Part shown: positions 108-27,485 of the stretch, in pieces
How positions within the stretch are numbered: the first letter of the stretch is position 1
Layout of the letters: every line of letters begins with the position of its first letter
Source of the DNA: Monosiga brevicollis MX1
Taxonomy: Eukaryota; Opisthokonta; Choanoflagellata; Craspedida; Salpingoecidae
Direction: 5' to 3'
Length of the DNA stretch: 27,485 nt
Assembly: GCF_000002865.3 (NCBI RefSeq)
Contig: NW_001865042.1
Coordinates: forward strand, 312,536 to 340,020
The notes under the pieces: model-generated
Seen by the model: the letters and a program-made list of their open reading frames with translations, nothing else
Database searches by the model: none
Told to the model about the DNA's origin: nothing
Position numbers and translations under genes: made by a program

Positions 108-1362
108 GTCGACTGCGCCAATGCACACTTTGACATTGAGGTCGGCCGTGAGGTCCACCAAGAAGCTCAGTAGCTGCTCCAGAGAGCCAACAAGGGAGGA
201 GCCATCCTTGAGACCGTAAATGGCTGCGCGCAGGCTAGTCATGGCGCGCACGCGGTCCTCGGGGAGAGCGGTCGCGCTTTCAAGTACATCAACTACCGAG
301 GCCGCCAGAAAGCCAAAAGTGGGGCCTGATACTTGCTCTGCGCTGGCTGCTTTCAGACTGCGAGACATGATCTACATCCAGACATGGTCAAATTCCAGCC
401 CAAGTCATTTATGCCAAGTTAGTGCGGTGATGCTACAGGACTAGCGTCGTGACCTCGGGGTCTCGTGACCCCTGCCAGGAAAACAAAACTGGGGCGAGTT
501 CGTACATGGGCCGAAGAGATGCGCGTGCCGCTGGGAGCGGCGGCAAGCAGGGCTGTGTAGAATTCTGAACCGAGCAGAGTTGGCAGCTGCTTGACACACT
601 AGAAAGGAGTCAAAGGAGTAAATGAGCATCGTATGAACGAGCGCCAAATCACAAGACGCAACGAGCGCGGGGGCAAAGGATGCCCTGGGAGCAGCGTACC
701 GCGTTGGCTGCAGCGGCCACGTTCGCGTTTTCGTGGGTGGTGTTTCCCTCGAGAGCTGCAAGGATTTGGTAGGCACTTTGACGATCAAATCCGTGCCAAA
801 CCTATCGACGCGTGCAGAGAGAAGGGGCGCAGGGCAGGGCACGGGCTCGTTGAGGCACGTTTTTTGAGGAGGAAGTTCGAGTTCCGACAGCAAGAGGGGT
901 GTGCAGACAACAGGGACGAAGGGCTTCACTTACGGAGGAGCGGGTAAAAAGCTGAATGGCGGCGGCACGAACGGTATCATCTCCAGCATTGATACCGTGC
1001 TCGAGGCAGGACATGAGCACATGGGTATCATCTCGAGCCGCGGTCAGCCAGGCAGAAAGAGCGGCCTGGGCAGCTTTGCGAATGGTAATTTTCTCATCGG
1101 TCAGATTGGCAAAGAGGCGTTCAGCCAGGGCGCAGCCTTCAACGGGCATCTTCACTATGAGCTCATTGGCCAGGCCGATGGCTTCACGCCGCACGTTCCA
1201 ATTGGGATTGGCAATGGCTTGGCGCAGGCCGACAAGGAGTTTGTTGGATAAGGCCTGATCCTGGAGAGGCAACTGTGATTTCAGCTTTTTCTTGAGGTGT
1301 TCAATGGCCTCGAGGCTTTGCTGGCGCTGGCCAGCGCTCATGGCCTGAATGTCTTCCTCCAT
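108..1362 (-). CDS. TOGARAM1: TOG/HEAT-array protein, TOGARAM1/crescerin-like, 5' part
   Basis: Four exons on the minus strand, read from high to low: 1362-934, 801-700, 598-506 and 371-108. Each starts after an AG and ends at a GT donor (GTAAGT, GTACGC, GTACGA, GTAAGT). All are phase 0, giving 296 residues, and the gene continues off the left edge. The protein is made of paired amphipathic helices with HEAT/TOG-type loops such as NPNWNVRREA and DEKITIRKAA. Residues in the last exon (FGFL, then SSLVG, then DLNVKV) follow the order recalled for the first TOG domains of animal TOGARAM1. Crescerins bind tubulin and set the length of axonemal microtubules in cilia, which suits a flagellated cell. 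The ATG at 1362 is the first in-frame start after a region without coding signal. Another HEAT/TOG protein is possible; exon structure is more certain than the name. Confidence 0.72.
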
Positions 1363-1904
1363 GCCGGCGGAAGATAATAATTGGCACGCCCAGGCGCAGC
1401 AGACCCCTCAGAACGATTGCAAGGCTAGAACGACGGAGAGCAGCAGGGTTGCACCATCGAGCAAAAGGGCTGCTCTTGCGTAAGCTTAAAGATGGAACAG
1501 CAACGTCCACTCAGCGCTGGGCAAGGCAGCGCGGTAAAGGCAGCAAGGCCGCCATCGCCAACAATCCGGGTAGGACTTCCACGCGTTTGGCCCACGGTGC
1601 TTCCTGTTTCGCGAGCAAGGGGAACCTGTGCGCGTGCTGAACTTGCGTTCTTCTCCGAATCTCGGCCCGAGGTGGGGGCGCTTCAACCTCGCGCCAATGG
1701 GAGCTGCGTGCGCAGCGTTGTCGTATCAGATGGTGTTTGGGCGTTTGAGCCAACGTCCTCTAGCCTTCCAGGAAGGTTGACTGCGATGCTTGTTGGTCTA
1801 GCGTGCACAGCAAGTCGAGCGAGGCATCGAGACATGAGCGATAGGTACGGAACCCAAGAGCCAGCCATTTAGCAACCCATGCCACCCCTATCCCAGGATC
1901 CTGG

Positions 1905-10570: not shown

Positions 10571-10803
10571 GAGGGATCTTACACTCTCCTCCAGATCACA
10601 CACCCGAATGTTGTCCGCAGTTGTTGATTATCTCATCTTACCCCTCCAATATGATTGCGGAATGTCAGATCGTATTCGTGTACAAATAAGAGAGGTTATT
10701 AAATTTAGACTGGCACTTGTGTAGAACAAAGTCAAGATTTTTTTTTTGTATAGTTACGAGAGGAAAAACGGCCATTTACGTGATTCAAAGACACCGGCAC
10801 AAG

Positions 10804-11251
10804 ATGGCCTCGTTTCAATCGCTGATCGAGTCGCTGGCAGCGACCAAGGTCAAGGACGTGCCCCAGTGGGCGCTCAAGAACGTCTCCTCCAAGAACGTGA
10901 ACAGCGCCACTGGCAACTGGCTGGAAAACTACGGCAAGAAGTACTTCAAGAAGGGCTCGGCCCGTCCCATTGTTCACACCATGCTGGCCCTCGGCCTCCT
11001 CGGCTACGTGATGGAGTACTCGCACTTGGCCGGTATGTCAATGCTCGATGCGCGTGTCGAGCGCGCGCTTTCTTTGGGCAGCTCAGTCACTGTCGGTGGG
11101 CTTCCAAACACGTCCTCGATGCGGGATCTGCTGAGAGGTCACGTGCGGGCCACTTGCCTTGGTTTCCATATTCACGTCGCTTTCAACTCACCGATCCCTC
11201 ACGTTTGCTCCCCTCCGCACAGCACACGAGCGTCAAAAGAAGTACCACTGA
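10804..11251 (+). CDS. ATP5MF: Mitochondrial ATP synthase subunit f
   Basis: Two exons, 10804-11032 and 11223-11251, joined in phase 1 across a 190-bp intron (donor GTATGT, acceptor CACAG), give 85 residues; animal subunit f is about 90. An N-terminal matrix part contains VPQWAL and a Gly/Lys/Tyr-rich stretch (NYGKKYFKKGS). Then comes one membrane helix (about residues 58-75, HTMLALGLLGYVMEY) and the C-terminal hallmark HERQKKYH, which sits alone in the tiny second exon and matches the HERxRKYH end of animal subunit f. The protein belongs to the membrane Fo sector in the inner mitochondrial membrane and supports dimer formation of the ATP synthase. The start is the first ATG of the frame (AAGATGGCC context). 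No separate presequence is evident, as in other subunit f proteins. Confidence 0.92.
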
Positions 11252-12119
11252 GCCCGAGGCTCGGCCTCCGTCTCGACTCTTGTACTCCGTTTCTTCAGCC
11301 CTCTCCTTCTTTCAACCGTGCTCTCGCGCCCTAGGCCTTGGTTCAGGGATTGAGCATGGTCCATCGACTGATGCTGAAGCCAACTTTCCCTTCGTCTCGT
11401 GAAGATGTGGTCTTGCAGTCTACCTTCCTCCTGGGGCAACAAACTGATTTCGTAGTCCTGGCTCGTCATTCTGCATGAACTGGCCGGCCTAGCTCCTGTC
11501 TTCCTTCTAGCGTGAAACTTTTTCTTTTTCCCCCACGAGAGGCCTTTCTTCGTTCTCACTGTTGTGTCAGGCGGTGTGCTCCAGGCCTGAGGCTTGGACT
11601 TGCCTTTTGTCGTCTTTCACTTGTACGCCTCAGCTTTTAGCTTTGCGACTGTTGTCCGCGAGTGTATAGCCTCCCGGACCTCCAGTACAACAAGTGCCAA
11701 AATGAAAAATTTACTCTTACCCTCACATTCGTTTGGATTTGGATGTTTTTTTTTTCTCAAACCCTCCCCACAACATGGGGATCGTCAATGTTTTACGAGT
11801 CCGCTCAGGGGGGCGTCGATTGACGCGCTGAGTCGTCGTCTTCCAACTGCATCTCGCGAGTGAGCCGTCAGACAAGGATCATGCTCGCACCGCCTTGCAG
11901 TTCAGTACACACACATGCACACATACACACATAACAAGAGACACCAGAAAGCGCGCAGCGCGCCTCACACCCAAGGCTAAGCGAGGCAGGCATCAAAAGG
12001 ATGACACGGCAGAACAGCGACACGGGGTTCAAGCCAAGGGTCGGACAATTGACGCCTCAGAAGAACAAGCAAATGTCTTGTGCTGACTGACGGGTCAATG
12101 CCACAGACCGCACCAAAAG
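11252..12119. other. Convergent 3' intergenic region, ATP5MF / RIN-like
   Basis: About 870 bp between two stop codons facing each other. It must include both 3' untranslated regions. A short CA-rich stretch lies at about 11908-11935. No coding exon was recognised on either strand. Confidence 0.55.
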
Positions 12120-15100
12120 CTAGGCTAGCCCGGACTCGCTGGTACTCTGAGCACTCGTCTTCACCGTGCTACCCTGACTAGTCGGGGCACGTCGAAAAAC
12201 AAATCGACAACGGCCTTGCGCGTGCAGGCGGTGATTCCAGGCGCCCTTGAGCGCTTGAGGTTGTTCGTCTGGTGCCAGTGCTCGATACTCATCATTAATC
12301 ACCTCGAATAAGCCATCCCGTGGGTCGGGAGCTAGTCGCAGTTTTCGTCTAATCATCTCAATCGCCTCCTGGGCTGTCATGGTGCGGGTGATGGGAAAGG
12401 TCTTGTAGACCATCTGCGCCTGCGACGGCGAGAGTAAGATCAGGCAGATATTCGAGTGCTCTGACAGCACGGAGCAAGGGCAATACAAGCAGCTTTTAGT
12501 GATAAGGAGCACACCTTGATGTCGGGGTGTTCAAAATAAATGTACAAAAAGCCCTGGACATCATCAAAGCAGGCCGTGCGCAGGCGCGGGCTAGCCTGTA
12601 GATCAAAGTTCTTCAGCACCTGCACCGCACTTGACAAGGTCACCAAATAATACCCCCCCTGCGCCATCCCGCCAAAGCGTTTGGTGAGGCACGATGATAC
12701 GTGTCCAGCCTTTGCCTTTGATGAGCATGCCTCACTGCGACACATAGCGTACCTCGCCCGCCATGATATCAGGATCCAACAGTCCCGACATGTACTCCAC
12801 CTCAGCTTCAGGAAAACGAATGTCCTAAGATGCGGTTCACCCGACATTTAAACGACCCTTCATCTCGAACGACAACGAGATTAGCCACGCAGGAGCCAGG
12901 AATGAGCACAACACACCGCTTTGTGTAGCACCCAGATGAAGAGGGGCAGAAATTCATCGGCGCCAATGAGGGCGGCGCGATCTCCCAATGACTCGTGAAT
13001 GGCAGAAGTGATGGCCTTGACGCCAGACAACAGGTGCTATGTTTGAAAGGCACGGTCGATCAAGTGCGCCGGTCATCAACCAGATGAAATACCAACAGCC
13101 ACAGACCAATGCACGCCCTCCTGCCTGCCCGCGCCAACAAAGCAGACCTGAAGCTTGCGGATGGGTGACTTAGCCTTTTCCATGAGCTGTAAAAAGGCAA
13201 TGCTGGTCTCATAATTGACCTGCGTAGCAAGCTACCAGAAAAGCAAGCCGACACCAACACCAATGAGAAAAGCCAAGAAGGAAGCCCATCCAGCACACTA
13301 GACCATGTCGTGGCGTGATGATGTCATGGCTTGAGTACGAATTAGAAAAAGGATGTCCAGTAGCTTTGCATGCTCCACACAACACAAGCCCCACCTCCTC
13401 CTCAACTCCAATGTCTTCAGGTTGACTCTCTTTCAAAATCGTGAGCTTGTCCGCGAGACGATTCACGTTGTGGCCCCTTGAACGAAGAACAACCCCAAAA
13501 AGCGATCGTCAATGGGTGAGCTTATCCAAAAAACGGTCTTTCCCATAGTCCACGCCTCTGATAGCATCCCAGCCAGTGCACAAATACATACAGGTCACGA
13601 AGAATCAGCTTAAACGTCACGTCGTACATGTGCTCGGTGACGTGCGATTGTAGAGCAATTTCAATCAAACCCAAAAGATCGACTTCGTACATCAGGTCTA
13701 AGGCAGGGTCGGGACAGTGTGTGCATCAGCTTGAGTTTTGTAGCGCGACCAGGTATAGCTGTGTACAATCCTACCTGTCACATCCTCCACGCGAAAAATG
13801 CGTCGCAAGAGTCGTGAAAAATGGCCGCCTATGGCACGGGGTGATGGGGTAATGGAAGCATCGTTTGATGAGCTACTATATCGGGCTTGTTGGGGCAGAC
13901 TCGCCCAGTTGTGAAGATGCACCAACCATGCTGCGTTAGAATCAGTCTCCGCATGCCGTTCAAGAATTGTCGAATGGACCCCATGAGAGCCGTGCTTGAA
14001 CTGGGAGCCGACAAGAGAACACAGTCTTGGAATGTCTCGATGCTGCGCGCCTCCGTCTGTCGCTGTCGAGTCAGAAGCGTTTCCAAATAGTGCCGCACCT
14101 TGCGACGCGCGCTTCTAAGCAAAGGGAGAGTTGACCGATGGGAGCAACACGTCATCAGTGTGTTCGGTCGAGCTAGCAACGAGCGCGTCGCCTCCTTGGC
14201 TTGCCTTGTGGAATGACTTACGCTATTGCTTTACCATGCCGGATGCTACGGCGCTTGCGACGGTGAGGCTTTGGCGAGGATGTGGGGGATTGGGAATCTG
14301 CGCACAACCCAGCATGGCACACAAAGACAAACGCGCGGGCAAGCATCAGCACCGACCTGCCCCCGCATGCGAAGACTGCCGCAAAGCGACTCTTGGAAAC
14401 AAGTGTCTCTTTCTCGTACCGGTCGGGCCAGACTCTTGAACGGCCGTGCTGTTCGCGGTGTTGCCTTGTGATGAATGCACGGCCGCCTCAGCGTTCTCAG
14501 CGTTTTGAGAGGCGTCGGGAACAACAAGTGAAGCCCCCAAGGACGTCGGCAGGGAGTGTGATACCGCTATTCCAATCAAACAAGACAGGTTAGGCAGCGT
14601 GTCAATGTTGGTGTGTTGATGTCCGAGGCAGCAAGCCGAACATGGCAAAAGCACCACAAGTGTGTGGCTAGGCCCACCTTGTGATGATGAGATGGCTGTG
14701 CGCTGGGGTAGCAACAAACAACAAGGCAGCTTTCCCCTGCGCGACCGTGCACACAGACCCCAGGTGAGAGGGTGCAAGGGCAGCGAGGGGCCAAGGTGAC
14801 TGCAACATACGAATTATAAACGTGATAGGCCAAGAGGTGGGGCATGGTACTAAAAACCAGGGTATCGCCGGCGATGCGCACGCCATCCACAACTTCTTCT
14901 CTCTGAATGTAGCCCGAGAACCTGCCGACATGACACGACCAGGATCCCGCATCATTCAAAACGACAGTATATCACACCACCCTTGCTGCGGGCGTGACCG
15001 GGCAGTCTTGGGCAGGTCGGCCTACCGCTCAACAAGAAAATGGACAACAATGCCGTGGATGCTCAGGCAAAGAACCTGTTGCCCTTTATATTGGGAGCTG

Positions 15101-15690
15101 GGTCGGACGAGGAAGGTGCCTTGAGGTTGATCCTCGAGCACCTTGGTGGCGGCAATGCGATCCAGGTCGGGCCGGTACACGTGCTGATACACGAGCAAAA
15201 CCTCGTTGATGGCCTCTTGCGGGACATTGCTGCAAAGTTTGTAATTGCTCGGTAGCGTTGTGGTCTCGCTGCGCCGACGCAATTCCTCGACGTCTGTCCA
15301 AGGATCCGACTGCTGCGACGGGTCGAACATGAGGTAGGTCTCTGGCGGGCCTCCAATCTGATCATCCGAGTCAGAGTCTGAATCAGAGTCGGTGCCATTG
15401 CGGTCGAGGGCTTCTCCGTAGTCGTAGGAAGGCAGGGCCTGGCTGGCATCTTGTTCCAAAGCTACCCCTCCGCTTCCGGCTGTGGCTATGTCAGGCTCAA
15501 TGTCCAAATAAGCATCAGTCTCTGCTTCGCCCAGCGAGTCGGACAGGACGCTGTCGGCACCAGCCAAGTACAAGGAAAGGGCCTGATCCTCTCGCTGTTG
15601 CTGCGAGTAGCGCTCGTGGTACTCGGCCAAGACAGCGCTGACGTCAGACCCGGCCGGCGCCTGCGCCTCGGCCTCGCGCAGGAGACTCAT
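12120..15690 (-). CDS. RIN: RIN-like Rab5 exchange factor (SH2-VPS9-RA)
   Basis: Fourteen exons, all phases matching, give 752 residues: 15690-15026, 14921-14811, 14736-14678, 14566-14357, 14297-14222, 14114-13927, 13828-13775, 13697-13592, 13476-13395, 13219-13148, 13036-12917, 12824-12753, 12658-12515 and 12419-12120. Order: acidic N-terminus with a (DS)n run; SH2 domain (about 155-275) with GTFLVR, Arg196 being the phosphotyrosine-binding arginine, ending in LPCCLLLP as in RIN proteins; Ser-rich then basic linker (PHRRKRRS); helical bundle and VPS9 domain (about 375-650) with SIRQFLNGMRR, GADEFLP (Asp568) and GEGGYYLVTLSS (Tyr609, Thr612); Ras-association domain (about 655-735, ending RFVFRR). 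RIN proteins couple active Ras and phosphotyrosine to GDP release from Rab5 on endosomes. All residues normally needed by VPS9 domains seem present. Exons 3 and 7 are short and were placed partly by phase. Confidence 0.9.
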
Positions 15691-15899: not shown

Positions 15900-15972
15900 A
15901 CAACGACGGCGACGGTGACGGTGACGGTGACGGTGACGGTGACGGTGACGGTGACGGTGACGGCGACGGCGG
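15900..15972. repeat. (GACGGT)n hexamer repeat
   Basis: About nine near-perfect copies of GACGGT flanked by GACGGC variants, roughly 210 bp upstream of the RIN-like start codon. It stays open in several frames (Thr-Val or Pro-Ser) but has no coding context. Confidence 0.93.
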
Positions 15973-16830: not shown

Positions 16831-17223
16831 GTATGCTCGCGCGCGTGCCCTCGTGTTTCTCGCGGCTCCTGCTACTCTGGCCTGGCGTTTGTCTCATCTG
16901 CTTCCTGCCACTTTGAACTGACGGCTGGTCGGTCGTTCCAGGTGTCGCACTTGCGGTTATCTTGATTCGGATCTCAGCAGAGCTGGCTGACTCGTGCATC
17001 GGCCATCCAACAACGGCGTGCCTGCCCTGGTGCTGGGCTTCTCTTGCACGGAATGGATGCGTGACTCATTGGCAAGAGGGCTTTGGATGTGCGTCCCCTT
17101 GCAGCATCGGCAGCGAAAAAAATTGCAGCTGCAACAGCTCCTCATCGGACGCCCAGGGCAGCCAGCGGACGGTTGATTGAAAGTCGGGCTGTGCGCGCCC
17201 AAGCTCCAATCATCTTTGTCGCG

Positions 17224-20200
17224 ATGGCACCGCCTCCGAATGCCCCGCCTCATTTGGAGCTGGAACCGGAAGAAGATCTCTTTGCTGACCCCATATTCGC
17301 CAAGGCCAGCCCCCCAGCCTCCAGCTTGCACACGGCTACGGCCAATGGCAAAGATCCTGGCCCTCAGGTCGCCCCCAGTGCGACCACTGACAATGCATCC
17401 AATTCTGCCGCGGATGACGGCGAAGACGTCACTGCCACGCCCTCCTTTGCAATGTCGGAGCGTGAACACCTGTTGGCCATGTCCCTTCTGGAGGATGCGC
17501 TCTTGGGTCGTGTCAGTGTACAAGCAGATGATTTGCAAACCATTCAAAGCTATCGGGACTATCATCGCTGGGAGTATCGACTTTTGGTTGCTTTTCTTGT
17601 TGTGGCTCTGTTGGCTCTGGCCCTTCTTGAGGCTCCCAACGGGAGCCTTCAGCTCCTCCTTCCTTGGCAAGCCACCATGAGCATCGAGGCTCTCATCTTG
17701 CTCGTCTTTGCGATCCGCTTGAGGCATTTGTCGCGCTTCCAAACCTACCGCCAGTTTTGGTTTGACCGGAAAAACATTGGGCTGATCGCCATCATTGCGG
17801 TAAGCCTGATTTGTCCCGTTGTTCTGAGAGCTGACAGAGTTTCTCAAAAAGTCTGCCTACCGTGCTCTTCTCTTCCACCCCTTGAATTCCTCAATTGCTT
17901 TGTCCGATTCTTCCCACAGCTAACCTACATTGACATGGTCGTCTACATTGCCACATCTTCCACCGACTCGTTCACCCTCCGCTACACGCGCGTCCTTCGT
18001 CCCATCCTCGCCGTATGCTTTAGCGAATTTCGACAGGTCAGTCCTATTCTGCCTCAACTGCTTTTTTTTTTATCTCTCACAGCCGTGGATTCTCAACTCA
18101 CCCTGGATCTCACTTCATGCTTTGAACTTGAACTTTCTTCTCCTGACCCTCGCTTTCTCTCGTGGGGTCGCAGATTCGCCGCGTCTTTCGAAGCGTTCGC
18201 CGTACCATCCCAGGCGTCGCCAATGTCTTGGTCCTGCTGTTGTCTACCATTGCTCTTTTCTCTCTGTTGGCCCTGTCCTTATTTCGAAAGCACCGCTATG
18301 TGGCACCAAGTGGCGATCGTTACATGGACTCATATTTTGACATTTACTGGGAGTTTTACGTCCTCATGACCTCCGCCAACTTCCCGGATATCATGTTCGT
18401 CTCTCTTAACGCAAAAGTCCCTGCGCCGTCTCTGCCCTCACACTCACTCATCAAACATCAATCACGGTCGCCCGCACAGGATGCCGGCCTACTCTCAAAA
18501 CGAGTGGTATTCCATGCTCTTTGTCTCGTTCATCGTGATTACCATGTACATTTTCCTGAGCATTGTGCTAGCCGTGACCTATGACAACTATCGGACCCAT
18601 CTCAAGGTACGCACGGCATGCACATTGCGCGTTGCTCTGAGCGCCGGGCGCTGCCATCCCTTTCTTGATACCTGCACCTCCAAAGTCTGTGAACCTTACC
18701 GACCTTTTTCCTTTCTTGGCGCCTCCATTTAGAACGAGATTAAGATCCAAATGATTAATACTCGCATCAATCTGCGCCGGCTCTTTGAGATTCTGCGCGA
18801 GCCAGGCCGTGGTGTCCCCTTTGATCGTGTACGACCCTGCCTGTTCGGGCCAAATCCATGTGCAGCGACCTGCAACTTTGTTCACGTCTCGCCCATTGCA
18901 GTGGCTCCGAGTTGTTGTAGACGCGACCAAGACTGACCCTGAAAAGGCGCAGCTCTTGTGGAAACTGCTTGATACTCGCAACGTCGGCCAGCTCTGTCAG
19001 TACTCATTCACGCGTGGTGGCGCAGTTTGCTAAAGTTGCATGCCTCAAGTCACTGATACCTGCTTCCTTACAACGCCTCCGCGTGTGCAGCTCTGAATCA
19101 GCTGCTGCAAACGGCAGATGTTCTCAACATCATTGTCAGCCCGGTTCGTGCCACCATGGGCTCGCCAATCGGACCTGATGCGTTTTGCCTATATCTTTTA
19201 AGAGGGCTTCTCCGTGAGTCCTTGCTTGCATCTCACTCCATCGTGTCGGTGCTCTCTTTAAACAGGTCAGCAGTCGGAACAATATCTTGGATCGGCGTTT
19301 CCCAAGTTGCTACAGTTCGGATATCAGCAATTTCATCAAGGCAGTCGTTCGTTCCAAGTACGCGTTGAGGCCCGTAGCCAACCAAGCGTGCAGGCAACAG
19401 GCTCTTCGAAACAAGCTGCGTGACTTCTCACCATCGCATCTAAATTGGGCGTTGTATCCTCAGATACTTTACCTGGTTTTTCGACGTTGTCATTTTTGCC
19501 AACGCCATTCTTATTGGCGTGAGCGACGACGATGCGGAGGTGGTCCTTCTGCCCCTCTACAACGTTGAGATGCTGCTCAAGCTTTACACTTTTGGGACAG
19601 TCAACTTTTTCCGAAAGTCCTGGAATGTGTTCGATTTTGTCGTCATCTTCATCGGTACACTTCTGGCCATCTTGGAGGCAGCGGGTATGTGTGCGCGATA
19701 CAGAGGTAACGGCACTTTTGTGCGTCGCCGTCGGTCCTCATGCTAGATGCGCCCTCCCCGCCCCCTCTGCAGATGTCAATGACATTAGCTTTTTAGATTT
19801 TGTTTTGGTGCTTCGTGTCCTGCGTCTCGTTCGTATCTTGAACCACTATGAACAGTACGTCTGCAGGCGCCGCTTCAAAATTGCCTATGATACATCAATT
19901 TGAGCGCTTGAGCGGCCAATCAGGGCTCTGTAGCTGAAGCAGTCTGATCCAAGCCATGCGCCATGGTGCAAAGTGCTGATAACTTGCCCTACTCTGTGTG
20001 GCTCTAGATTTGCTGTGATCATTAGTACCCTTTCGCAGCTCGGCCCGGCTCTTTGGACCTATGCGTGCGCGCTCTTCTTGGTGTTTTACGTGTTTGCGGT
20101 CGTTGGGATGGAGTGCTTTGGCGGGCGCATTTACGAGGTCAGTGCTGTCTTGATGTACGCGACATAATAAGAGCATCTTTGATAACGCTGCCTGACCTCA

Positions 20201-21219
20201 CTGCGCTTTCACACTTCAACCAGGGCAACGCCAAGCTGGAGGGTCATGTTTTCGACCCAAACTCCACATACTACCAGGATTTGATGTCGCAAAATCCGCA
20301 GCTGATCGGTAGTGATTTTGCCAAGGACGGCTACTTTACCAACAACTTCAACGACGTGGTAGCTGCCTACGTGACCTTGTTCGAGTTGATGGTTGTCAAT
20401 CAGGTTTGCCCGTTTCGTCTTCGTTGCTTGCACCTGACCGGCTTCTGCGTCTGCTGCACCAGTCTCAATTTCCCCTGTCGCTGGCTGCTGCTCGTACTAT
20501 AGTGGCATATTCTGACAAGTGGCTTCGTCATTCTTACTAACGAGTCGGCCCGCCTCTTCTTTCTTGCATTTCATCTGACCGCCGTCGTTCTGATGCTCAA
20601 GTAAGTATGCTTGATCTTTTTTTTTTTTTTTCTGGCGTCGTTGTCAGCTTTGATCCTCAAGCTCACATCAACACACCTTCTTGAATCCGGTGTTGCCTAG
20701 CATTTTTGTCGCTTTTATTCTTGAAGCCTTTTTGATGCAGCTACAGTTGTTTCATGGTGTCGCCACTGACGATCTCTACACCAAAGTCCAAGCTTTTCTT
20801 GAAGCCCAGTAGGTCGCCACCGCCGTTTTCCATACACACGTGCTTTTTTTTGCGCATGCCCCTTGCATTGAACGTGATGGCAACAAAATCTTTCTGCCAA
20901 GGCCGCGTCTCATGTTACCACCTCTGGTATAGAGCCGGCTCATCCACTGGCAGAGCATACGTGGTTGAACCGCGCATGAAGGTCCGTTCAACTAGAAATT
21001 GGTTTTACGGCCACATGCACCCATCTCTTGACCCGTCTGCTATTCCATGCCAAGTGTTTTGCCCTCACATCATGCGTGGTTCAGTCCGCAGATACCATCT
21101 ATCAACGGCTCTTTGAGGAAGAGGTGATGCAACAAGTTCTAGAGTACGAGGAAGAGCTGGAGCGCGATGGAGGCCCCTCCTACGCCGTTTGGTATGAGAA
21201 TGCGGACATGGATGTTTAG
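17224..21219 (+). CDS. TPCN1: Two-pore cation channel
   Basis: Sixteen exons give about 784 residues: 17224-17799, 17920-18036, 18174-18394, 18480-18606, 18733-18828, 18902-18995, 19091-19143, 19266-19357, 19464-19684, 19773-19854, 20008-20137, 20224-20403, 20503-20600, 20701-20808, 20902-20926 and 21085-21219. The architecture is two six-helix repeats. Repeat I: S1 near residue 120, pore with MTSANFPDIM (297-305), then S6. A linker carries a degenerate EF-hand-like segment (DTRNVGQLS). Repeat II: S1 YFTWFFDVVIFAN, S3 NVFDFVVIF, S4 LRVLRLVRIL with three arginines spaced by three, pore LFELMVVNQWH, S6 NIFVAFILEAF, and a charged C-terminal helix. Two-pore channels release Na+ or Ca2+ from endolysosomes in response to PI(3,5)P2 or NAADP. 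The ends of exons 7 and 15 are uncertain. TPCN1 or TPCN2 type cannot be decided. Confidence 0.9.
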
Positions 21220-24873: not shown

Positions 24874-27485
24874 TCATAGGTCGTGCTCCGTGAGATGAGG
24901 CGCAGGCGCAGCCCGTGCTGCCCCCCACGCAGACGCACGACGAGAATTTACTGATAGTAGATCCCAAGGATCTGATTCCAGGATATCAAATCCTTCATCC
25001 TCATAAAGACTTGGTCGTCGCCGACGCCAAACCGCTAAGACAATGAAAAAACAACAAGATAAAACTCCCAACGCCACCAGGACAGGCCAAATGACATCGA
25101 GGGAGTTGTTATCCTCACCGCCACTAGCTGGGGACAGGGTGGTCTGTGGGCGAGTGTCATTGACATATTGAAGATCGCCTTGATCGATCGAGGGATCATT
25201 GGTGGTAGAGAAGAAGTTACCAAGAACAAAGTCAAACACTGTCGTTACGGAAGGTTGTGAAGATGATGGAAGCAGAGAGCTCGACGTCGACGAACTAGTT
25301 GAGCTAGTGCTTGAGGTACTCGAGGTCGATGATGTGCTCGAGGTAGAGCTCGTAGAGGTCGTCGAGCTTGTCGAGGTTGTGCTCGACGTCGAGCTAGTGC
25401 TCGATGTGCTTGATGTACTGGTGCTCGAGGAGGTCGATGATGTGCTCGAGGTACTCGACGTAGATGTCGTACTGGACGTCGAGCTCGTGGAGCTGGTGCT
25501 CGAAGTCGATGATGTGCTCGACGTCGAGCTAGTGCTCGATGTGCTTGATGTACTGGTGATCGAGGAGGTCGATGATGTGCTCGAGGTACTCGACGTAGAT
25601 GTCGTACTGGACGTCGAGCTCGTGGAGCTGGTGCTCGAAGTCGATGATGTGCTCGAGGTAGAGCTGGTGCTCGATGTGCTCGAGGTACTGGTGGTCGAGC
25701 TGGTGCTCGATGTGCTCGAGGTACTAGTGGTCGAGCTGGTGCTCGATGTGCTCGAGGTACTCGACGTAGATGTCGTACTGGACGTCGAGCTCGTGGAGCT
25801 GGTGCTCGAAGTCGATGATGTGCTCGAGGTAGAGCTAGTGCTCGATGTGCTCGTGGTGCTCGATGTGCTCGAGGTACTAGTGGTCGAGCTGGTGCTCGAT
25901 GTGCTCGAAGTACTAGTGGTCGAGCTGGTGCTCGATGTGCTTGAGGTAGAGCTAGTGCTCGATGTGCTCGAGGTACTGGTGGTCGAGCTGGTGCTCGATG
26001 TGCTCGAGGTACTAGTGGTCGAGCTGGTGCTCGATGTGCTTGAGGTAGAGCTAGTGCTCGATGTGCTCGAGGTACTGGTGGTCGAGCTGGTGCTCGATGT
26101 GCTCGAGGTACTGGTGGTCGAGCTGGTGCTCGATGTGCTCGAGGTACTCGACGTAGATGTAGTACTGGACGTCGAGCTTGTGGAGCTGGTGCTCGAAGTC
26201 GATGATGTGCTCGAGGTAGAGCTGGTGCTCGATGTGCTCGAGGTACTGGTGGTCGAGCTGGTGCTCGATGTGCTCGAGGTACTAGTGGTCGAGCTGGTGC
26301 TCGATGTGCTCGAGGTACTCGACGTAGATGTCGTACTGGACGTCGAGCTCGTGGAGCTGGTGCTCGAAGTCGATGATGTGCTCGAGGTAGAGCTAGTGCT
26401 CGATGTGCTCGAGGTGCTGGTGGTCGAGCTGGTGCTCGATGTGCTCGAGGTACTGGTGGTCGAGCTGGTGCTCGATGTGCTCGAGGTACTAGTGGTCGAG
26501 CTGGTGCTCGATGTGCTCGAGGTACTCGACGTAGATGTCGTACTGGACGTCGAGCTCGTGGAGCTGGTGCTCGAAGTCGATGATGTGCTCGAGGTAGAGC
26601 TAGTGCTCGATGTGCTCGAGGTGCTAGTGGTCGAGCTGGTGCTCGATGTGCTCGAGGTACTCGACGTAGATGTAGTACTGGACGTCAAGCTTGTGGAGCT
26701 GGTGCTCGAAGTCGATGATGTGCTCGAGGTCGAGCTAGTGCTCGATGTGCTCGAGGTACTAGTGGTCGAGCTGGTGCTCGATGTGCTCGAAGTACTAGTG
26801 GTCGAGCTGGTGCTCGATGTGCTTGAGGTAGAGCTAGTGCTCGATGTGCTCGAGGTACTGGTGGTCGAGCTGGTGCTCGATGTGCTCGAGGTACTCGACG
26901 TAGATGTCGTACTGGACGTCGAGCTCGTGGAGCTGGTGCTCGAAGTCGATGATGTGCTCGAGGTCGAGCTAGTGCTCGATGTGCTCGAAGTACTAGTGGT
27001 CGAGCTGGTGCTCGATGTGCTCGAGGTACTAGTGGTCGAGCTGGTGCTCGATGTGCTCGAGGTACTCGACGTAGATGTAGTACTGGACGTCGAGCTTGTG
27101 GAGCTGGTGCTCGAAGTCGATGATGTGCTCGAGGTCGAGCTAGTGCTCGATGTGCTCGAAGAACTAGTGGTCGAGCTGGTGCTCGATGTGCTCGAAGTAC
27201 TAGTGGTCGAGCTGGTGCTCGATGTGCTTGAGGTAGAGCTAGTGCTCGATGTGCTCGAGGTACTAGTGGTCGAGCTGGTGCTCGATGTGCTCGAGGTACT
27301 CGACGTAGATGTAGTACTGGACGTCGAGCTTGTGGAGCTGGTGCTCGAAGTCGATGATGTGCTCGAGGTCGAGCTAGTGCTCGATGTGCTCGAAGAACTA
27401 GTGGTCGAGCTGGTGCTCGATGTGCTCGAAGTACTAGTGGTCGAGCTGGTGCTCGATGTGCTTGAGGTAGAGCTAGTGCTCGATG
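24874..27485 (-). CDS. Mucin-like type I membrane protein, 3' part
   Basis: An open frame enters from the right edge and ends at TGA 24876-24874. From the edge to about 25277 it encodes more than 730 residues that are almost only Ser and Thr (SST and TTS triplets), with no Pro, Gly or Cys, so a heavily O-glycosylated extended stalk is likely. Then come about 60 unique extracellular residues (FDFVLGNFFSTTND, one NDT N-glycosylation site), one membrane helix (VIWPVLVALGVLSCCFFIVLAVW), a stop-transfer RRRR and a 45-residue cytoplasmic tail (YEDEGFDILESDPWDLL) with one tyrosine and acidic residues. Signal peptide and any N-terminal adhesion domain lie outside the window. The family is not recognised; a cell-surface or extracellular-matrix role is inference. 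No intron is visible in the part seen. Confidence 0.78.
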   Translation of the reverse strand, partial: SSTSSTSSTSSTSSTTSTSSTSSTSSTTSSSSTSSTSSTSSTSSTSSTSSTSSTSSTTSTSSTSSTSSTSSTTSTSSTSSTSSTSSTSSTSSTTSTSSTSSTSSTTSSSSTSSTSSTSSTSSTSSTSSTSSTSSTTSTSSTSSTSSTSSTTSTSSTSSTSSTTSTSSTSSTSSTSSTSSTSSTSSTSSTSSTTSTSSTSSTSSTSSTTSTSSTSSTSSTSSTSSTSSTTSTSSTSSTSSTTSTSSTSSTSSTSSTSSTSSTSSTSLTSSTTSTSSTSSTSSTSSTTSTSSTSSTSSTSSTSSTSSTSSTSSTSSTTSTSSTSSTSSTSSTTSTSSTSSTSSTTSTSSTSSTSSTTSTSSTSSTSSTSSTSSTSSTSSTSSTSSTTSTSSTSSTSSTSSTTSTSSTSSTSSTTSTSSTSSTSSTSSTSSTSSTSSTSSTSSTTSTSSTSSTSSTSSTTSTSSTSSTSSTTSTSSTSSTSSTSSTSSTSSTTSTSSTSSTSSTTSTSSTSSTSSTSSTSSTSSTTSTSSTSSTSSTTSTSSTSSTTSTSSTSSTSSTSSTSSTSSTSSTSSTTSTSSTSSTSSTSSTTSTSSTSSTSSTTSTSSTSSTSSTSSTSSTSSTSSTSSTSSTTSTSSTSSTSSTSSITSTSSTSSTSSTSSTSSTSSTSSTSSTSSTTSTSSTSSTSSTSSSTSTSSTSSTSSTSSTTSTSSTTSTSSTSSTSSTSSTSSTSSTSSSTSSSLLPSSSQPSVTTVFDFVLGNFFSTTNDPSIDQGDLQYVNDTRPQTTLSPASGGEDNNSLDVIWPVLVALGVLSCCFFIVLAVWRRRRPSLYEDEGFDILESDPWDLLSVNSRRASAWGAARAAPAPHLTEHDL
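25277..27485. repeat. Layered 9-bp tandem repeat coding for Ser/Thr
   Basis: The base unit is 9 bp, on the plus strand variants of GTGCTCGAG / GTGCTCGAT / GTACTGGTG, each encoding a Ser/Ser/Thr-type triplet on the minus strand. The marker GACGTAGATG recurs at 25457, 25592, 25763, 26150, 26321, 26528, 26663, 26897, 27068 and 27302. The spacings (135, 171, 387, 171, 207, 135, 234, 171, 234) are all multiples of 9, showing longer duplicated blocks on top of the basic unit. The array continues past the right edge. Confidence 0.95.

What the first reader, a model, noticed from the sequence alone, without database searches (positions are those of the whole stretch)
12120..15690. Complete SH2-VPS9-RA (RIN architecture) protein in a probable choanoflagellate
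Fourteen exons join in phase into one protein with an SH2 domain carrying an intact FLVR arginine, a VPS9 domain with GADEFLP and GEGGYYL motifs, and a C-terminal RA domain. In animals this set defines RIN1-3, which link Ras and tyrosine kinase signals to Rab5 endocytosis. If the source is unicellular, the link arose before animals. The domain order is seen; the evolutionary reading is inference.
Basis: partly seen in the sequence, partly recalled or inferred. Interest (0 to 1): 0.75.

Follow-up and report, generated by a model that had tools for sequence, protein, structure and literature searches.

The report
RIN-type Rab5 activator in a choanoflagellate
A single-celled relative of animals, Monosiga brevicollis, carries a gene that looks like a complete animal RIN protein, which in animals connects Ras and tyrosine-phosphate signals to the uptake of material into the cell; the family was already reported to be older than animals, so this is a fuller early example rather than a surprise.

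Summary
On the minus strand at 15690-12120, 14 exons with GT-AG introns of 56-163 nt join into 741 residues (reader: 752; linker splice sites are uncertain). Pfam finds, in order, SH2 (5.7e-7), RIN1-like (0.0012, below cut-off), VPS9 (1.3e-22) and RA (1e-4). In a six-frame search of the genome the RIN1-like family matches once, inside this gene. The gene is single copy. The genome is Monosiga brevicollis: four Munc18 exon pieces hold identical runs of 47-56 residues with PDB 2XHE. Best reading: a RIN-family Rab5 exchange factor with a phosphotyrosine input (SH2) and a Ras input (RA); activity is inferred. RIN was already described as a holozoan innovation, with a VPS9-RA homologue in Capsaspora (PMC6032885). 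What this adds is an SH2-bearing RIN outside animals, not seen in my paper searches, though the main SH2 surveys were not held. Not settled: whether SH2 and RH-VPS9-RA exons share one transcript (a two-gene reading is possible), and a VPS9 tree, for lack of animal RIN sequences. An ordinary member of a known family; interest modest.

The parts
15026..15690 (-). exon 1: start codon, acidic N-terminal region (residues 1-160), most of the SH2 domain with R178, R196 of FLVR and H217
14759..14921 (-). exon 2: end of SH2 domain and start of linker
14678..14702 (-). exon 3: linker, 25 nt, limits uncertain
14420..14566 (-). exon 4: Ser/Thr-rich linker, limits uncertain
14222..14297 (-). exon 5: basic linker, poor coding score, limits uncertain
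13927..14114 (-). exon 6: most of the RIN1-like (RH) domain; limits set by hand
   Evidence: 1.9e-4 on exons 6-7; only match in the genome search, window 13934-14098
13775..13828 (-). exon 7: RIN1-like domain, continued
13592..13697 (-). exon 8: end of RIN1-like match, helical region by eye
13395..13476 (-). exon 9: region before VPS9, start of the match to AtVPS9a
13148..13231 (-). exon 10: start of VPS9 domain
12917..13036 (-). exon 11: VPS9 domain with GADEFLP (D557)
12753..12824 (-). exon 12: VPS9 domain, ends in ..AGE
12515..12658 (-). exon 13: VPS9 domain, GGYYLVTL and end; acceptor chosen by hand to restore the motif
12120..12419 (-). exon 14: C-terminal RA domain and stop codon; end set by hand at the first stop of the frame
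   Evidence: (RA 4.2e-5 on this exon alone)

Best explanation
A single-copy RIN-family gene of the choanoflagellate Monosiga brevicollis, encoding SH2 - linker - RIN1-like (RH) - VPS9 - RA. Shown: the domains, their order and their key residues. Inferred: the RH-VPS9 tandem opens Rab5-type GTPases with the acidic D557, as Rabex-5 does with D313; the SH2 domain ties the protein to phosphotyrosine on active receptor tyrosine kinases or their partners; the RA domain binds GTP-loaded Ras-type GTPases at the membrane. Together they would make endocytosis of activated receptors depend on two signals.
For: Pfam SH2, VPS9 and RA over cut-off, in RIN order, with RIN1-like between SH2 and VPS9; SH2, VPS9 and RA also over cut-off in an unedited script model. 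RIN1-like is the only family matched on its region and has one match in the genome search. The RA exon is one of 6 RA matches over cut-off in the genome. VPS9 aligns to Rabex-5 4n3z (30 of 98 residue pairs identical in the first printed block) and to AtVPS9a 2efc, with the Asp of A-D-[DE]-F-L-P kept in the blocks printed. Rabex D313A abolishes exchange (PMC3919270, passages); that D313 is the first Asp of that motif is recalled. SH2 matches CHK, and M. brevicollis crka1, across FLVR and the later His in the printed alignments. RIN domain set SH2-PRD-RH-VPS9-RA, with RH and VPS9 both needed for Rab5 interaction in RIN2 (PMC8963869, passages). Single copy. Species: four pieces of a Munc18 gene on contig C47 hold identical runs of 55, 56, 47 and 51 residues with 2XHE, which is the M. 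brevicollis protein (PMC3693963, passages).
Against: RIN1-like scores below its Pfam cut-off each time (19.6, 21.7 and 22.1 bits, 19.9, against 27), and with a limit of E 1 the same search also rang in one of 14 control genomes, E. coli, below cut-off. The genome search with the VPS9 family did not list this gene (its VPS9 domain is split over four exons, and exon 11 alone scores 22.2 bits). Linker exons 3-5 have poor coding scores and 99 in-frame paths exist, so the SH2 to RH join rests on splice signals and order, not on homology. The four script models shown ran past the stop at 12120 by splicing to 12057, and two of the four lost part of the RA domain. One PxxP in the whole protein, so no proline-rich region. 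Rabex-5's YYFT reads YYLV here. The RA exon folded alone gave pLDDT 50, no use. The species marker crka1 SH2 (2RVF) found only relatives up to 59% in the held assembly. No VPS9 tree with animal RINs.
Confidence: 0.85

Rival explanations
1. Two adjacent genes on the same strand: an SH2-only protein ending by read-through of exon 2, and a RIN-like RH-VPS9-RA protein starting at an ATG before exon 6.
For: Exon 2 read through gives a 336-residue protein with a stop ending at 14576; the frame of exon 6 is open upstream with one ATG, at 14155, no splice needed. Linker exons 3-5 score poorly as coding. The Capsaspora homologue is described with VPS9 and RA only (PMC6032885, passages).
Against: SH2 lies immediately upstream on the same strand, in the order that defines animal RIN. 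The four script models shown run through from exon 1 to the 3' end, but I had filtered for models reaching that end, so this is weak. Only 420 bases would remain between stop and ATG for a terminator and a promoter (from the coordinates).
Confidence: 0.1
2. A convergent fusion: a VPS9 protein of another subfamily (for instance Rabex-5-like) that gained SH2 and RA domains on its own in choanoflagellates.
For: VPS9 proteins have gained ankyrin repeats independently at least three times (PMC6032885, part 2 of the text); M. brevicollis has domain mixes such as PDZ with SH2 not known from animals (PMC8512817, passages); six of ten solved-structure matches are Rabex-5 or AtVPS9a, none is a RIN.
Against: The RIN1-like domain sits at the right place and was matched nowhere else in the genome; pieces of two other VPS9 genes of this genome gave no RIN1-like match (partial pieces, a weak control); independent gain of both partners in the same order is unlikely.
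Confidence: 0.05

Closest known systems
Animal RIN1, RIN2, RIN3
   Same: SH2, RIN1-like/RH, VPS9, RA in the same order; VPS9 acidic residue kept
   Different: no proline-rich region (one PxxP); acidic N-terminal region of about 160 residues before SH2; RIN1-like score below cut-off; Rab5 and Ras activity untested
RINL
   Same: like it, without a proline-rich region (PMC8963869, passages)
   Different: not compared further; no RINL sequence was at hand
Capsaspora owczarzaki RIN homologue (Herman et al. 2018, PMC6032885)
   Same: VPS9 and RA domains in a unicellular holozoan
   Different: an SH2 domain is present here; none is mentioned for Capsaspora in the passages read
Rabex-5 / AtVPS9a
   Same: VPS9 exchange module; 30 of 98 residue pairs identical to Rabex-5 in the first printed block
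   Different: no zinc finger matched by Pfam (coiled coil not tested); SH2 and RA domains instead

Membership tests
RIN (Ras and Rab interactor) | N-terminal SH2 domain with FLVR arginine | tested here: met
   PF00017 5.7e-7, over cut-off; R196
RIN (Ras and Rab interactor) | RIN-homology (RH) / RIN1-like domain before VPS9 | tested here: inconclusive
   PF23268 0.0012 on the whole protein, 1.9e-4 on exons 6-7, below cut-off; one match in the genome search. That PF23268 is the RH domain is my inference from position
RIN (Ras and Rab interactor) | VPS9 domain with acidic catalytic residue | tested here: met
   PF02204 1.3e-22 (1.7e-14 in an unedited model); D557 aligned
RIN (Ras and Rab interactor) | C-terminal RA domain | tested here: met
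   PF00788 1e-4 on the whole protein, 4.2e-5 on exon 14, over cut-off
RIN (Ras and Rab interactor) | proline-rich region between SH2 and RH (RIN1-3; absent from RINL) | tested here: not met
   one PxxP in 741 residues; RINL, a RIN member, has none either, so not disqualifying
RIN (Ras and Rab interactor) | all domains in one transcript | not testable with these tools
   no RNA data; an in-frame splice path exists, and so does a two-gene reading
RIN (Ras and Rab interactor) | VPS9 domain in the RIN clade of a tree | not testable with these tools
   no animal RIN sequence among the solved-structure rows shown (one search showed 60 of 122)
RIN (Ras and Rab interactor) | Rab5 exchange activity and Ras-GTP binding | not testable with these tools
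   bench assay needed

The most novel reading that the evidence does not exclude
The phosphotyrosine arm of RIN was added between the split of Filasteria and the split of choanoflagellates from animals: Capsaspora is described with VPS9-RA, Monosiga already has SH2-RH-VPS9-RA. RIN would then be a ready-made pre-animal switch that joins receptor tyrosine kinase and Ras signals to Rab5 endocytosis, with animals adding the proline-rich region and paralogues.
Probability: 0.4. Interest if true: 0.5.

Novelty: new member of a known kind. Interest (0 to 1): 0.3.

Why it matters
It gives a concrete unicellular protein in which the link between tyrosine kinases, Ras and endocytosis can be tested outside animals, and it bears on when the SH2 domain joined the RIN exchange factor. 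The wider point, that RIN is older than animals, is already published (PMC6032885, passages).

Tried and rejected
A gene-model script with a crude codon model skipped most of exon 6, started exon 13 at 12595 and so missed GGYYL, and ran past the stop at 12120. I corrected exons 6, 13 and 14 by hand using open frames, splice signals and the VPS9 motif. One search shows only models that reach the 3' end; others were filtered out. The third of its four models was later scanned as it stood.

Folding the RA exon alone gave mean pLDDT 50; I did not search with that model.

A second species check, with the M. brevicollis crka1 SH2 sequence printed, found no identical copy, only 17 matches of at most 59% identity. 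The best, L024, reads as an SH2-SH3 protein by eye, perhaps a crk paralogue. This does not fit the Munc18 result unless crka1 is missing from the held assembly, which I assume; 209 identical residues in four Munc18 runs speak for the species.

Of the 62 open frames of at least 110 codons in the window I scanned 10 outside this gene: 8 of 10 gave nothing at E 0.01. No paper describing a choanoflagellate RIN protein with SH2 was seen in six searches; two searches listed only 20 of 76 and 20 of 28 papers. Of the four papers all were looked into for the word RIN. Six look-ups were not held, among them reviews and surveys that I recall as treating SH2 proteins of Monosiga, so they may well list this protein.

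Full report
What is there. The minus strand of 15690-12120 holds a gene whose 14 exons join in phase into 741 residues, 13 of 13 introns GT-AG and 56-163 nt long. Exons 1 and 6-14 read as coding in their true frame (they trained the codon model), exon 2 weakly so; linker exons 3, 4 and 5 do not.

Domains. On the joined protein Pfam reports six families at E 0.1 or better: VPS9 1.3e-22, SH2 5.7e-7, RA 1e-4, RIN1-like 0.0012, and two overlapping weaker ones, RA_2 and SH2_2. SH2, VPS9 and RA pass their cut-offs; RIN1-like does not (19.6 against 27). Because I edited three exons by hand, I also scanned a script model as it stood: SH2, VPS9 (1.7e-14) and RA remain over cut-off, and RIN1-like is not seen because that model lacks most of exon 6. 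On exons 6-7 alone RIN1-like is the only family and reaches 1.9e-4. Searched in six frames across the whole genome at E up to 1, RIN1-like has one match, E 0.027, at C53:326469-326633, which is window 13934-14098, in exon 6 (1 of 14 control genomes, E. coli, also gave a match below the cut-off). The same kind of search with VPS9 did not list this gene, whose VPS9 domain is split over four exons.

Key residues. The FLVR arginine is R196. H217 aligns with a His in the three printed SH2 alignments, and R178 with an Arg in the one that reaches it, M. brevicollis crka1 (the names alphaA2 and betaD4 for these positions are recalled). In VPS9, D557 aligns with the first Asp of ADDFLP of Rabex-5 and the Asp of GADEFLP of AtVPS9a. 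Mutation of Rabex D313 abolishes exchange (PMC3919270, passages); that it is this Asp is recalled. One stretch differs from both relatives: YYFT of Rabex-5 and YFFT of AtVPS9a read YYLV here.

Organism. The window lies in a genome of 39.5 Mb in 57 contigs. Four exon pieces of its Munc18 gene hold identical runs of 55, 56, 47 and 51 residues with PDB 2XHE, differing only at the ends of the pieces, where my query runs into joins or introns; 2XHE is the M. brevicollis Munc18-syntaxin complex (PMC3693963, passages). Against this, crka1 of M. brevicollis (PDB 2RVF, PMC5043372, passages) has no identical copy among the 17 matches in the held assembly; I take it to be missing from the assembly. Monosiga brevicollis is a choanoflagellate.

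Copy number. The protein finds 13 matches in its own locus and two weak matches elsewhere, both to the SH2 part (E 0.012 and 0.065). VPS9 matches lie on five other contigs (6 matches, two of them close together on one contig), so this is one of several VPS9 proteins.

How it most likely works. RH and VPS9 form the exchange module for Rab5-type GTPases; in RIN2 both are needed for Rab5 interaction (PMC8963869, passages). SH2 and RA are two inputs, phosphotyrosine and Ras. All of this is inference from homology. The acidic N-terminal region (34 Asp/Glu and 8 Lys/Arg in 160 residues) has several tyrosines in acidic context that could themselves be phosphorylated; this is a guess.

What is known. 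Herman et al. 2018 (PMC6032885; passages, and part 2 of the text) call RIN a holozoan innovation, with a VPS9 and RA protein in Capsaspora and a poorly supported candidate in Dictyostelium, and included M. brevicollis among the genomes searched. The passages do not say what was found in M. brevicollis; the supplement could not be read. SH2 domains of Acanthamoeba have been said to resemble those of RIN among others (PMC4053784, passage). So the pre-animal origin of RIN is known. An SH2-bearing RIN in a choanoflagellate was not seen in six searches (the lists of 16 and 54 were cut at 20), but papers I recall as the chief SH2 surveys are not held.

Verdict. A real, probably complete RIN family member, single copy, in Monosiga brevicollis. 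The single-transcript claim and the tree placement remain untested. Interest modest. The mends made on checking did not change any odds.

Noticed in passing
window 15905-15969: Array of 10.8 copies of the hexamer GACGGT about 215 bases upstream of the RIN start codon.
   Followed up: no
window 25370-27485: Large nested tandem repeat array (units of 36, 135, 171 and 234 bases among others) running to the window end, with a 479-residue Arg/Pro/Ala/His-rich open frame on the minus strand at 25245-26684.
   Followed up: no
window 10690-11334 +: Open frame matching mitochondrial ATP synthase subunit F (PF10791, 5.4e-7), on the 3' side of the RIN gene.
   Followed up: partly
window 802-1407 -: Open frame with HEAT repeats (PF02985, 6.6e-6).
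   Followed up: no
window 17065-20502 +: Membrane-protein-like open frames upstream of RIN, by eye like a two-pore cation channel; Pfam gave no match at E 0.01 on the three pieces scanned.
   Followed up: partly
genome G000: The published M. brevicollis crka1 SH2 sequence has no identical copy in the held assembly; best relative 59% at C48:404935-405081, so the assembly looks incomplete.
   Followed up: partly
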